NCBI GenBank assembly: GCA_020050685.1
Contig: JAGVKG010000013.1
Coordinates: 1 to 64,000 of the forward strand
DNA length: 64,000 bases
Source of the DNA: Candidatus Obscuribacterales bacterium
GTDB taxonomy: Bacteria; Cyanobacteriota; Vampirovibrionia; Obscuribacterales; Obscuribacteraceae
Direction of reading: 5' to 3'
Positions within the stretch are counted from its first letter, which is position 1. Each line of letters begins with the position of its first letter. A program made the translations under genes and the position numbers. Below are positions 18,667-23,889 of the stretch, one piece after another. Below the pieces are notes generated by a model. That model searched no databases and was not told where the DNA came from. It worked only from the letters and a program-made list of their open reading frames with translations.

Positions 18667-20508
18667 GTGAAGATTCATCGATTAGCATTTACCGTAGCAT
18701 CAAGCATCATCATTCTGGGACAATCCTGTTTTGGCTCCAGCATGTCGCCGACAAGCTGGCCGGAAGCGCTGCGAGCAGACGCCGAGCAAAAAGAGGCAGC
18801 CGGAATCTGGTCTTTGAAGGCGCGTTCATTGAGCGGAAAGAACTGCGTAATCGCAGCCACTGCATCACCGATTGCCGTGCAGTCAGGCATTCAGGCCTTG
18901 AAGAATGGCGGAAATGCGGCCGATGCGGCAGCAACAGTGGCTTTGACACAAGTGACAACCCAGCTCGGTTCTGTGGTGTCATTTGCCGGCATCATGTCAC
19001 TGGTATATTTTGATGCGAAAAGCAAAAAAGTTTATTCAATGGATGCTGGCTATAACTCGTATCGTCAAGAAAACGATCCGGCAAGCATTCCTATATCAGA
19101 CTTGGGTGTGCTAAATACCACCGATAAGGCCAAAAGCCTGGGACTGAGCAACAATTATTTTCGTCCGCCTTCTGTCGGAGGGAAAAAAGGGCGGGAAACG
19201 TTGGTTCCCGGTTTTATGGCAGGCATCGAAGCAATGCACAACCGCTTTGGCAAGCTTCCGTTTTCTGACCTGTTTGAACCAGCAATCTGGTATGCAGAGC
19301 ATGGCACGATCATAAATTCGCATTTGCAGTATTTCTTCTCCTCAAGGCAAAAGTTTCTCGCTCGTACACCAGAAGGACAGCAGTTTATTCGTCAAGCTGG
19401 AAATGACACCCCCCAAGTGGGCGATCGTTTTATGCAACCCCAACTGGCTGCCACTTTGCGCGGCGTAGTGCACCATGGTGCAAAATATATGTACACCGGC
19501 GCCTGGGGGCAGCACTTCGTAAATACGATTCGGCGAGAAGGCGGGAAGGTCTGTTCCCAGGACATGAGTCACTACCACGTGATCTGGAGCGAACCACTGA
19601 GCACCACTTATCTCGGGCATCAAGTGGTAACTGCGGGATTACCCAGTCATGCCGCTTATCACGTTTTGACAGGACTTAATTTGGCAGAAGCATTAAAGCT
19701 GGAAGAGCATGAAAATTATTGGCAAGATCCGGCGGTACTTTGTGATTTTCAGAGGATCAGTGATGCAACCAACCAGGCTCCAACGCTTGATAAAAACGTC
19801 CTGACTATTTTGAAGAACAAAGGAATTGATTGCTCACCCAAGTCTCAACTGACAAAACAATATGCAAGCGCGCTAGTGCCATTGCTTAACCAACTCTATG
19901 TGCCATCAAACGATAATTCTCATCACTCCAATGCAATCGTGGTCATCGATCAGGAAGGCAACATTGCGGCCATCACCCATTCAATTAACACGGTTATTTG
20001 GGGAGATACAGGCATCGTTGTTGATGGCATTCCAATTCCTGATTCCGCGGGATTTCAGCAAGAAGAGCTGGCTTTACTTAAGCCCGGCGATCGCCTACCT
20101 AACGACATGATGCCGACGATTGTCTTTGAAGGACTAAATCCAATCCTCTCTACGGCAGCCATTGGTATGTCGTTGATTCCAGAAACTATTAGAATCATTG
20201 TTGGGCTAGTCGGCAAGAAAGTCGATCTAAAAACGCTTCAAGAAGCACCACCTGTAATCAGTAATTTCTTGACCACTGAGGCTGGCAAACCCTCCACTGA
20301 ACTGTCCGTAGTAATTGCCAAAGACTCATATGACGAGGCTTTTATAGAGGGGCTCAAACGAGGAAATGCAAAAGTGACAATAGTGCCTGCTGCAACTGCG
20401 TCTGGCGCCTTAAGAGGCACTGCCGCCGCTGTTACCATCGATCCTCAGACTGGCGACAAGCGCACCGTAGAAACGCCCGGAGTACTGATTTATGGCGCAT
20501 CGTACTGA
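18667..20508 (+). CDS. Gamma-glutamyltransferase homologue with altered active site
   Basis: The 613-aa secreted protein follows the GGT fold over its length: ASPIAVQSGIQALKNGGNAADAAAT near 75-100, a GRETLVPGFMAGIEAMHNRFGKLPF-type segment, and DQEGNIAAITHSIN plus DRLPNDMMPTIVFEG in the second half. In active GGTs a Thr at the maturation site (TTHxSVVD) is the nucleophile. The aligned segment here is HHSNAIVVID, with Ser421 in that place. The oxyanion SSMSPT is NDMMPT and the GSPGG loop is AAIGM. It may be a Ser-type or inactive member. Start GTG at 18667 gives a signal peptide. Confidence 0.72.
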   Translation: MKIHRLAFTVASSIIILGQSCFGSSMSPTSWPEALRADAEQKEAAGIWSLKARSLSGKNCVIAATASPIAVQSGIQALKNGGNAADAAATVALTQVTTQLGSVVSFAGIMSLVYFDAKSKKVYSMDAGYNSYRQENDPASIPISDLGVLNTTDKAKSLGLSNNYFRPPSVGGKKGRETLVPGFMAGIEAMHNRFGKLPFSDLFEPAIWYAEHGTIINSHLQYFFSSRQKFLARTPEGQQFIRQAGNDTPQVGDRFMQPQLAATLRGVVHHGAKYMYTGAWGQHFVNTIRREGGKVCSQDMSHYHVIWSEPLSTTYLGHQVVTAGLPSHAAYHVLTGLNLAEALKLEEHENYWQDPAVLCDFQRISDATNQAPTLDKNVLTILKNKGIDCSPKSQLTKQYASALVPLLNQLYVPSNDNSHHSNAIVVIDQEGNIAAITHSINTVIWGDTGIVVDGIPIPDSAGFQQEELALLKPGDRLPNDMMPTIVFEGLNPILSTAAIGMSLIPETIRIIVGLVGKKVDLKTLQEAPPVISNFLTTEAGKPSTELSVVIAKDSYDEAFIEGLKRGNAKVTIVPAATASGALRGTAAAVTIDPQTGDKRTVETPGVLIYGASY

Positions 20509-20586: not shown

Positions 20587-21240
20587 CTATTTATTTAGAC
20601 TAAGCGCAGAAAGGCGCCTCAGCCATTCATCAAAATGGTGACATTCACTTCTAATGCGATCCAAACCAATTGCTAAAGCGATGTTTGTTCCATGAAGCGG
20701 TTTTTCATAATTTGAGCATACGCGAAGAATACGTTTGGATGGAGCGGTCTCTGGTCCATCATTAATATATTCCGGTGATGGATAACTTGTTCTCTCTGTC
20801 CTAAGTACATCGACAGTTTTATCATCGAACCACTGGGAGAACTTGCCCGGTTCGCTATATAGCAGTCCTTCAAACTCATGGACCAAAAGATTAGGAAGGA
20901 AATTGCTGTACTGGATGTTTTGCGCCATGTGCTTTTCAAGTACACAAGCCCTTTGTAAAGGATCTGAAATCTTGCCGGCGTCATTCCGTCCAGGAAAGTC
21001 TGGTGGCAGACGGAACAAATCAAACATCGTGCTTACAAAGGCACTTTTATCCTCAAGGCATTTATTGTTTATTTGTGGCTTGATCTTTGCATAACTAACA
21101 ACTCCACCCTTACCCATTGAACTCGTCCGTACAAGAATCGCATTCAAAAATATACTCATTTGTATAAAATACGGATACAAGAGACGATTTAAAAATGTCT
21201 CCTCTGTCTGGCCCTCGACAAATACATGTACACGGATCAT
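20587..21240 (-). CDS. DUF4276 TOPRIM-like protein, partner of AAA ATPase
   Basis: The 217-aa product opens with VHVFVEGQTEETFLNRLL, the DUF4276 signature with the conserved Glu, followed by STMFDLFRLPPDFPG and LLVHEFEGLLYS. These acidic motifs fit the TOPRIM-like fold of OLD, RloB and AriB-type nucleases (family knowledge; not tested here). Its ATG overlaps the stop of the upstream ATPase gene in an ATGA, so the two are translationally coupled; the longer frame from 21306 is rejected. Function is unproven; as a pair this resembles anti-phage AAA + TOPRIM modules. Confidence 0.82.
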   Translation of the reverse strand: MIRVHVFVEGQTEETFLNRLLYPYFIQMSIFLNAILVRTSSMGKGGVVSYAKIKPQINNKCLEDKSAFVSTMFDLFRLPPDFPGRNDAGKISDPLQRACVLEKHMAQNIQYSNFLPNLLVHEFEGLLYSEPGKFSQWFDDKTVDVLRTERTSYPSPEYINDGPETAPSKRILRVCSNYEKPLHGTNIALAIGLDRIRSECHHFDEWLRRLSALSLNK

Positions 21241-22331
21241 CTGGACGGTCTTCCCCCCAAAAGATTCTTCTTCCATAACTCGCCCAGGCTGTAGTCTTGC
21301 AACCATGAGCGCAATTCCTCAGTATCTAGTCTTTTGAATACCGAACCGCCCTCATCCTTGTCGACGACAACAACATCTTCTGGATCAAATTCGTTCAGCA
21401 ATTCCACTGATTGTGTCGAAACTATCACTTGCTTTGACTTTGATGCAGAGCGAATTAACGAGGCTAATGTGGTAATGGCATACGGATGAAGACCTAGTTC
21501 TGGTTCATCTACTAAAATAGTTTCTGGTTGGAGATCTGCCGGTTGCAAAAAAACTGTCGCCAAACAAATAAAGCGCAATGTTCCATCAGAAAGATGGTGT
21601 GCCTTAAATGGGATATCCTCTCCTCGTTCAAACCATTCAAGCTCGATCATTTCTCCATTGACACCATTTGGACGAAGGCGAAATTGTCCAAAAAAAGGAG
21701 CGACTAGACGTATGGTCTGAACAATTTGCGAGAATTCTTTAGGATATACCTGCTGAAGAAAATAGAGGAAGGCAGCCAGGTTTCCTGCATCTGAGCGCAA
21801 ATATGCGTTGTCAGCTATTCTGTGGATCCGTTTCACATACGCGCTATCACTAGTATCGTGAAAATGGTAGACACGCCACTTTTTCAAAACCGGCACAACA
21901 TATTTATCTATCTTTGTGCCAGTTCCTTCTTCCGCTTTGCTTTCAAAGTGTCCCCGCCCAATTATCTTGGTAATAGCACCATCTGGAGCATCCCACCAAA
22001 AGCCTTCCTCGGCTATCATCATCCGGTTATCTTGCGTAGCTTCAAGGGACACCTTATAGCCATTATTTCCAAAGTGCAGTTCGGCGCTTAGAGTCCCTGT
22101 TACCTTACGACCAAAATGTAGGATCGAATCTGGTCCCCCGTGCTGGCTGACAAATTGTTGGAGGTTACCATCCAACAATTGTTGAATCATGCGAAAAAAT
22201 GTTATGAAGTTCGATTTACCAGCCCCATTAGACCCAATGAGTATGTTCAAAGGCCTCATCTTCAGCTCGCAGTCAGCAATCGACTTGAAGCCCTTCAGTA
22301 CTAATTTACTTAGTTTGCCGTTTAGCGCCAT
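21237..22331 (-). CDS. AAA_21-type ABC/SMC-like ATPase, partner of DUF4276
   Basis: The 364-aa ATPase has Walker A GSNGAGKSNFI near residue 33, the Q-containing strand soon after, the signature-like HLSDGTLRF near 248, Walker B with D-loop ILVDEPELGLHP near 270, and the switch VIVSTQSVELL near 298. There is no long coiled coil. This is the single-gene OLD-like/RecF-like ATPase fold (AAA_21). It is followed at once by the TOPRIM-like DUF4276 gene. The pair stands alone among housekeeping genes, with 108 bases between it and the TonB-like gene. Confidence 0.88.
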   Translation of the reverse strand: MALNGKLSKLVLKGFKSIADCELKMRPLNILIGSNGAGKSNFITFFRMIQQLLDGNLQQFVSQHGGPDSILHFGRKVTGTLSAELHFGNNGYKVSLEATQDNRMMIAEEGFWWDAPDGAITKIIGRGHFESKAEEGTGTKIDKYVVPVLKKWRVYHFHDTSDSAYVKRIHRIADNAYLRSDAGNLAAFLYFLQQVYPKEFSQIVQTIRLVAPFFGQFRLRPNGVNGEMIELEWFERGEDIPFKAHHLSDGTLRFICLATVFLQPADLQPETILVDEPELGLHPYAITTLASLIRSASKSKQVIVSTQSVELLNEFDPEDVVVVDKDEGGSVFKRLDTEELRSWLQDYSLGELWKKNLLGGRPSR

Positions 22332-22439: not shown

Positions 22440-23546
22440 CTAGAACTGGCGGAAGCGGCTACCGCCGGCGTTGAAAACGTTGTAGTCAAATGTGAATTTG
22501 ATATCGATCACATCAGCGGAGCCCGCTGGAAGCTGGCCAAATGGAGATGCTGATTGCACAGCTTGTGTAGCAGCATCATCGACTTGGGAAATACCAGAAC
22601 CTTTGGCTAAGCGAATGTCGGTAACGCTACCGTCTTTATGAATCTTGAATTTAAGAGTAACAGTCTTGGACTCATTGCCTTTTGGTGGGAACCAAGCTTT
22701 CTTGATCTTGCGCTGCATGTTTGCCAAATAAGCACCGTAATCAACATCGGACGAGTCGCCAGAACCCGATGATGCACCCGGATCACCAGAGCCTGATGTC
22801 GCGGTTGGTGCAGATGATGGAGCCGAGGGCGCCAAAGCGACTGCGTCCGGCGATGGTGCATTAGAAGGTACTGCCACGGCAACCGGGGTTACCTTCGGCG
22901 GAGGAATTGGTTTCGGTGGCTCCGGCTTTGGAGGCTCGATAACTTTTGCCGGCTCGACTTTTGGTGGAGCGGCTTTTGGTTTGGCTGCCGGTTCTGGCGG
23001 TGGGGGCTCGACAAGTTCAATATCAGTGGCTTGTTCAACTGGAGGCTTTGGTGCCACGACAAACAAAAGCAAGAGCAAACAGCAGGCCATAAATGCGTAG
23101 TGGAACAAATAAGATCCGCTTACAGCTTCCGGTAGACCCAAACCAACTGGCGAATATTTGCGACCTTTGTGAATTCTAACGGTGTGGTCGTATGCTGAAC
23201 GTACAGAAAAGAGTACGTAGCTTGAATAGAGCATAAACCAAACGAAAAGCACAAAGCCAGCACCATGCCCGCGCTGAAGTGGACGCATTAAGTCTGGATT
23301 CAGATCTAAGTGAAAGACAGCGCCAACTTGGCTCAAGACAGCGGCCAAGAAAAGCGGGAACGCCATGGCGACGAAGAGCGAAAGATTGATAACGCTAACC
23401 AGTAAGAACAAAGTTCCCCGGAACTTCTCGCCAATGTAAAGCTGTCCCAGTCCTGGCAAAAGCGAAAGCAAGGCAGCACGCTTTGGATCTGGAAGCGAAC
23501 TGATATCTACATCTGCCGGCGCGCACTTATCTATGAGGACATTCAT
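22440..23546 (-). CDS. Polytopic membrane protein fused to TonB C-terminal domain
   Basis: The N-terminal ~170 residues hold a DPKRAALLSLLPGLGQLYIGE motif, seen in TM2/DUF5683-type proteins, and four membrane segments including one at about 150-170. Then comes a Pro/Lys/Glu-rich linker of ~100 residues (repeated PPPEP, PKPEPPKP) and a TonB-type C-terminal domain (YGAYLANMQRKIKKAWFPP; LKFKIHKDGSVTDIRLAKGSG). Standard TonB has one anchor helix. The start is uncertain: GTG at 23588 lacks a ribosome site, ATG at 23546 follows GAGGGC. It may transmit force to or form cell-envelope contacts. No ExbB/ExbD genes are seen. Confidence 0.8.
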   Translation of the reverse strand: MNVLIDKCAPADVDISSLPDPKRAALLSLLPGLGQLYIGEKFRGTLFLLVSVINLSLFVAMAFPLFLAAVLSQVGAVFHLDLNPDLMRPLQRGHGAGFVLFVWFMLYSSYVLFSVRSAYDHTVRIHKGRKYSPVGLGLPEAVSGSYLFHYAFMACCLLLLLFVVAPKPPVEQATDIELVEPPPPEPAAKPKAAPPKVEPAKVIEPPKPEPPKPIPPPKVTPVAVAVPSNAPSPDAVALAPSAPSSAPTATSGSGDPGASSGSGDSSDVDYGAYLANMQRKIKKAWFPPKGNESKTVTLKFKIHKDGSVTDIRLAKGSGISQVDDAATQAVQSASPFGQLPAGSADVIDIKFTFDYNVFNAGGSRFRQF

Positions 23547-23889
23547 CGTGCCCTCATATTTTTCTTCTATGCTTTCAAAAGTCTTCACCGATCAGAAAAC
23601 TCCGCGAGCGCCCCTTGGCAATACCAAGGAAAGACACCATTTCTAATCGTATTAGGATGTCATAGATCCCCGACTTAGTCATTAACTTAAATTTGTAGGA
23701 GACTCGGCAAGAGTGCCGCCTTTGTGGCGCCTGACAACCACTATTCTCGCCGGATTCCCGAGCGAGTGCCAGCCTGTGCGGATCAAGCAAATAAGTTGCC
23801 GAAACGAGCAGCAAACAAACAAATGCATCAAATTTTATTTATCTCGAAAATAAGCAAGCAAAGTTGGTTGCCATTTGTTGATGTCCACC
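23547..23889. other. Intergenic region before the TonB-fusion gene
   Basis: About 300-340 bases without a supported gene. It must contain the promoter of the TonB-fusion gene on the minus strand and the end of the glucan phosphorylase transcript. I see no repeat copy, strong hairpin or clear promoter. Confidence 0.4.

What the first reader, a model, noticed from the sequence alone, without database searches (positions are those of the whole stretch)
20587..22331. ATGA-coupled AAA ATPase and DUF4276 TOPRIM-like gene pair
The ATPase (GSNGAGKSN, DEPELGLHP) and the TOPRIM-like DUF4276 protein (VEGQTEE, HEFEGLL) are translationally coupled and stand alone among unrelated genes. The layout parallels OLD-like, RloAB and PARIS (AriA/AriB) systems in which an AAA ATPase controls a TOPRIM effector. 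A defence or DNA-repair role is inference.
Basis: partly seen in the sequence, partly recalled or inferred. Interest (0 to 1): 0.6.

Follow-up and report, generated by a model that had tools for sequence, protein, structure and literature searches.

The report
HEC-01-type ATPase–nuclease defence pair
Two overlapping genes encode an ATP-driven sensor and a small nuclease-like partner of a type already catalogued as a candidate anti-virus module (HEC-01); this bacterium acquired them and carries them alone between household genes, so the find is a new example of a known kind whose nuclease target is still unknown.

Summary
At 20587-22331 (minus strand) a 364-aa ABC-type ATPase overlaps a 217-aa DUF4276 protein by ATGA; the DUF4276 start is 21240. 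It is not new: PADLOC names both genes HEC-01 (HEC-01A 7e-155, HEC-01B 2e-80), an "Hma-embedded candidate" defence module. Of 89 copies checked, 71 have exactly the same 4-nt overlap. Five related loci lie between a helicase and a DNA methylase; neighbours are otherwise mostly unrelated. The window copy is accessory: 3 of 50 family genomes have the pair, in different clades; two relatives have the same locus without it; DUF4276 has the lowest GC of 46 window genes. The TOPRIM reading is supported: the only significant solved-structure match is an OLD TOPRIM domain, and E9, E13, D74, E122, E124 and K180 are invariant and spaced as in the OLD active site, but the second Asp of DxD is Tyr/Phe. 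It works like OLD, RloAB and PARIS but is not PARIS (no DUF4435) and not a fused OLD. Most likely mechanism: the ATPase senses invasion and licenses a metal-dependent nuclease. Trigger, substrate and defence activity are inferred, not shown.

The parts
21237..22331 (-). HEC-01A-type ABC ATPase, 364 aa (AAA_21/OLD-like head); Walker A G33-N41, signature S248-G250, Walker B D275-E276, Q307 at the position read here as the switch residue
   Evidence: HEC-01A E=6.7e-155; model pLDDT 95; SMC/Rad50/OLD/PtuA/GajA folds; motifs invariant in 72 sequences
20587..21240 (-). HEC-01B-type DUF4276 protein, 217 aa, TOPRIM-like predicted nuclease; conserved E9, E13, G45-G46, D74, E122, E124, K180
   Evidence: PF14103 3.3e-52; HEC-01B 2.1e-80; pLDDT 96; OLD TOPRIM 6njv, E=1e-4; profile match to OLD-like TOPRIM
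21237..21240 (-). ATGA overlap (start of DUF4276 / stop of ATPase), predicted translational coupling
   Evidence: sequence; same -4 overlap in 71 of 89 homologous pairs
21250..21258 (-). GGGGGGAAG, possible Shine-Dalgarno for DUF4276 inside the ATPase gene
   Evidence: Read; inference

Best explanation
A horizontally acquired two-gene HEC-01 defence module. The ABC ATPase forms the sensing and regulatory platform and, when it detects an invader cue, activates or releases the co-translated DUF4276 TOPRIM-like protein, a metal-dependent nuclease that cuts invader or host nucleic acid and stops phage or plasmid propagation. Shown by computation: family identity, strict pairing, ATGA overlap, conserved catalytic-type residues, accessory distribution, defence-associated context in some relatives. 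Inferred: complex formation, nuclease activity, substrate, trigger, phage protection.
For: PADLOC HEC-01A/B are the best models by far. The 4-nt overlap recurs in 71/89 copies, and the ATPase stands beside DUF4276 in all but 2 loci, both cut at contig ends. DUF4276 fold: the only significant PDB match is the XccOLD TOPRIM region (E=1e-4, prob 1.0); best viral match a RloB-like protein (prob 0.98 but E=2.6e-3); hhalign to OLD-like TOPRIM Prob 91%, P=9e-7. Invariant E9-x3-E13, D74, E122-x-E124, K180 match BpOLD E400-x3-E404, D455, T506-x-E508, K562 in order and spacing (PMC6755086). Context: helicase-[pair]-methylase in 5 loci; Hma-like or Argonaute neighbours on plasmids. Accessory and acquired.
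Against: No defence gene adjoins the pair in the window. The second DxD aspartate is F76 here (Y in 73/76), so the metal-A site differs from OLD. TM-score to the OLD TOPRIM is only 0.41. Most immediate neighbours in relatives are ordinary genes. I have no phage assay for this copy, and the HEC preprint could not be read here.
Confidence: 0.7

Rival explanations
1. Plasmid-borne competition or stabilisation module (anti-plasmid defence like Wadjet, or a toxin-antitoxin-like pair): the pair targets incoming plasmids or acts as a toxin held in check by the ATPase, and the chromosomal copy descends from a plasmid.
For: The nearest plasmid relatives (60-62% identity) are on Nostocales plasmids, three of them close to ParA/ParB genes; another copy is on an 11-kb plasmid beside VapBC.
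Against: Many copies are chromosomal and several sit inside Hma-like operons; no small antitoxin-like gene is conserved beside the pair.
Confidence: 0.15
2. PARIS-like surveillance, a sub-case of the defence reading: the ATPase recognises a phage anti-restriction protein and releases DUF4276 as a host RNase (for example tRNA cleavage), causing abortive infection.
For: Same two-gene ATPase/TOPRIM split as AriA/AriB (PMC12409363, PMC10568477); embedding in methylation-based systems would fit guarding against anti-restriction.
Against: The AriA model scores only 3e-28 against 7e-155 for HEC-01A, and there is no DUF4435 match. The window copy has no restriction system beside it to guard.
Confidence: 0.2
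3. DNA-repair or chromosome-maintenance pair (RecF/Rad50-like ATPase with a TOPRIM nuclease), not defence.
For: The ATPase fold equally resembles SMC/Rad50/RecN heads.
Against: Absent from 47 of 50 family genomes, empty sites in kin, lowest-GC gene of the window, different clades for the three family copies.
Confidence: 0.06

Closest known systems
HEC-01 (Hma-embedded candidate 01, PADLOC-DB 2.0.0)
   Same: Both genes hit the HEC-01A and HEC-01B models almost end to end; adjacent; relatives lie inside helicase-methylase operons.
   Different: The window copy is solitary, between gamma-glutamyltranspeptidase and a TonB-like gene, without Hma genes.
PARIS (AriA/AriB)
   Same: Separate OLD-like ABC ATPase and TOPRIM-type effector genes (PMC12409363).
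   Different: Effector is DUF4276, not DUF4435; ATPase is far closer to HEC-01A than to AriA.
OLD / Gabija GajA nucleases
   Same: ABC head plus TOPRIM; order and spacing of E-x3-E, D, x-E, K active-site residues as in BpOLD.
   Different: Two polypeptides instead of one; second Asp of DxD replaced by Tyr/Phe; no UvrD-like GajB helicase beside it.
RloAB (ATPase plus RloB)
   Same: Two-gene ATPase plus small effector; best viral structure match of the DUF4276 model is a RloB-like protein.
   Different: No RloB Pfam match; the viral structure match is weak (E=2.6e-3).

Membership tests
HEC-01 | ATPase matching HEC-01A | tested here: met
   PDLC04175 E=6.7e-155, residues 5-362 of 364
HEC-01 | DUF4276 protein matching HEC-01B | tested here: met
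   PDLC04188 E=2.1e-80, residues 1-214 of 217
HEC-01 | Two adjacent genes on one strand | tested here: met
   ATGA overlap; the same in 71/89 homologous pairs
HEC-01 | Lies within Hma genes (how the family was found; not part of the two-gene module itself, to my knowledge) | tested here: inconclusive
   Not so in the window; so in 5 of the related loci and in two plasmid loci
HEC-01 | Anti-phage activity | not testable with these tools
   Preprint not held; PMC12988326 says several HECs are active without naming HEC-01
PARIS | DUF4435 AriB effector | tested here: not met
   Only PF14103 hit
PARIS | AriA as the best ATPase model | tested here: not met
   AriA 3.2e-28 versus HEC-01A 6.7e-155
OLD / Gabija | ATPase and TOPRIM in one chain | tested here: not met
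   Two ORFs
OLD-type TOPRIM domain | Invariant Glu after the first strand, and metal-B acids | tested here: met
   E9, E13, E122, E124 invariant in 76 sequences; E9 follows strand 2-8 in the model; mapped by order and spacing, no 3D overlay available
OLD-type TOPRIM domain | Complete DxD motif | tested here: not met
   D74-x-Y/F76: first Asp invariant, second never Asp in 76 sequences
OLD-type TOPRIM domain | Fold match to a solved TOPRIM | tested here: met
   6njv E=1e-4, prob 1.0, but TM only 0.41

The most novel reading that the evidence does not exclude
DUF4276 is a distinct TOPRIM subclass with a D-x-Y active site, paired with an ABC ATPase that has an invariant Gln where the switch His is usual; its chemistry or substrate (for example a single-metal nickase or a structured-RNA nuclease) differs from OLD, GajA and AriB, and the pair works as a free-standing module outside Hma systems.
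Probability: 0.25. Interest if true: 0.45.

Novelty: new member of a known kind. Interest (0 to 1): 0.27.

Why it matters
HEC-01 is catalogued, but I found no mechanism for it in the papers I could search, and no paper in the library mentions DUF4276. A solitary, acquired copy with predicted catalytic residues (E9, E13, D74, E122, E124, K180) and confident models makes the effector's substrate directly testable and suggests that the pair is self-sufficient outside Hma operons.

Tried and rejected
Housekeeping repair locus: rejected on distribution and empty sites. PARIS membership: rejected on Pfam/PADLOC. Prophage or phage origin: no relative in 50,697 phage records or in viral contigs (close relatives only). 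Transposon-type flanking repeats: none of 9 nt or more between the flanks. Sequence search for solved relatives of DUF4276: nothing credible, even with the profile. Promoter/terminator scan: no more than shuffles, nothing on the minus strand. A profile comparison that would have used a DUF4435 protein failed in the tool. A first hhalign attempt missed half the OLD-like loci for strand reasons and was replaced.

Full report
Observation. The two ORFs exist as described on the minus strand. The ATPase is 21237-22331 (364 aa). The mechanical ORF of DUF4276 begins at 21306, but the start at 21240 creates the ATGA overlap and is the start that relatives use; the protein is then 217 aa (20587-21240). 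Pfam: DUF4276 PF14103 3.3e-52; AAA_21 1.7e-30.

What it is. PADLOC identifies the ATPase as HEC-01A (6.7e-155) and DUF4276 as HEC-01B (2.1e-80), both nearly full length. HEC stands for Hma-embedded candidate (PMC12111858); Hma is the helicase-methylase-ATPase system described with PADLOC (PMC8565338), later regarded as BREX-related; BREX and BREX-related loci often carry TOPRIM-linked OLD-ABC modules (PMC12839542). NCBIfam has no model for the effector.

Anatomy of the ATPase. In 72 homologues the Walker A G33, N35, G38, K39, the signature S248-D249-G250, Walker B D275-E276-P277-E278, and Q301, Q307, S308 are invariant. The model (pLDDT 95) resembles SMC/Rad50 heads, OLD, PtuA and GajA. It is therefore an ABC-type ATPase and not AAA+. 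Reading Q307 as the usual switch-His position is my inference from the motif.

Anatomy of DUF4276. The model (pLDDT 96) begins strand-E9-helix and has one significant PDB match, the C-terminal TOPRIM region of X. campestris OLD (E=1e-4, prob 1.0, TM 0.41). The best viral match is a RloB-like protein (prob 0.98, E=2.6e-3). Profile comparison with OLD-like TOPRIM proteins of the same bacterial family gives Prob 91%, P=9e-7 for a single comparison, pairing VEGQTE with VEG.TE; that alignment does not pair the DxD region convincingly. Invariant residues E9, E13, D74, E122, E124, K180 (76 of 76) follow the order and spacing of the B. pseudomallei OLD active site E400, E404, D455, T506/E508, K562 (PMC6755086): E-x3-E in both; D to E 50 versus 53 residues; E to K 56 versus 54. 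The second Asp of DxD (D457) is Y76 in 73 of 76 and F in the window. This mapping rests on spacing and profile alignment, not on a 3D overlay.

Pairing. Of 89 loci in which both genes could be read (one plasmid is counted twice, as L006 and L014), 71 overlap by exactly 4 nt and nearly all the rest lie within a few nt; two loci without a readable ATPase begin at a contig end. The pair is a unit. By contrast its neighbours vary: 68 upstream neighbours fall into 54 clusters, 75 downstream into 57. The largest clusters are a helicase upstream (7 loci) and a DNA methylase downstream (5 loci), the two together in L025, L026, L038, L050 and L055, that is, the pair embedded in an Hma-like operon. Immediate neighbours hit 119 (upstream) and 255 (downstream) PADLOC models at 1e-10 against 8 for 50 control genes of the window; this is a crude control, because one protein can hit many models, and per family only 5-7 neighbours match. 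On plasmids the neighbours include helicases and methylases (L010, L011, L013), an Argonaute (L009), VapBC (L012) and ParA/ParB genes (L006, L007, L009).

History in this genome. Only 3 of 50 genomes of the same family have a DUF4276 relative of this kind; the other two copies (about 38-42% identity) fall in other deep clades of the ATPase tree, although long branches make their exact place unsure, and the window copy groups with cyanobacteria, mostly Nostocales (SH-aLRT 87, unstarred). The G027 copy is frameshifted. Relatives G020 (L128) and G019 (L134) have the conserved block DnaK-MBL-GH-TonB-GlgP with the GH and TonB-like genes directly adjacent, 165 and 81 bp between their matched ends, and neither the pair nor the gamma-glutamyltranspeptidase gene. 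DUF4276 has the lowest GC of 46 window genes (z = -3.1) and the ATPase is fifth lowest. Together these point to horizontal acquisition and speak strongly against a housekeeping role. No flanking repeat of 9 nt or more marks the insertion. No relative was found in phages. I could not name the host organism.

Mechanism. Best supported: the ATPase senses an invader and licenses the co-translated TOPRIM-like nuclease. Sensing, complex formation, cleavage and substrate are inferred from OLD, Gabija and PARIS (PMC10568477, PMC12409363). AriB cleaves tRNA and GajA nicks DNA, so kinship alone does not decide the substrate.

Verdict. Ordinary in kind, real and well supported: a solitary, acquired HEC-01 module. 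The preprint doi 10.1101/2024.01.29.577857 (cited) is not held; from memory it tested HEC systems against phages, and whether HEC-01 was positive I cannot say.

Noticed in passing
window 18667-20508: The gamma-glutamyltranspeptidase gene beside the pair is itself accessory: in 3 of 50 family genomes and missing from the empty sites, so the GH-TonB gap seems to accept insertions.
   Followed up: partly
L160:853-2067 (own genome G000:C22): A 405-aa protein with an OLD-like TOPRIM domain and no recognised ATPase domain; PF20469 proteins, mostly of about this length, occur in 28 of 30 family genomes, which suggests a housekeeping role.
   Followed up: partly
L138:8013-8680 (G027:C198): The DUF4276 gene of a relative is split by a frameshift near residue 76 while its ATPase gene is open: decay or assembly error.
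   Followed up: partly
window 22440-23588: TonB C-terminal-domain protein; genomes of this family carry 4-24 matches each to this query, which looks like an expansion.
   Followed up: no
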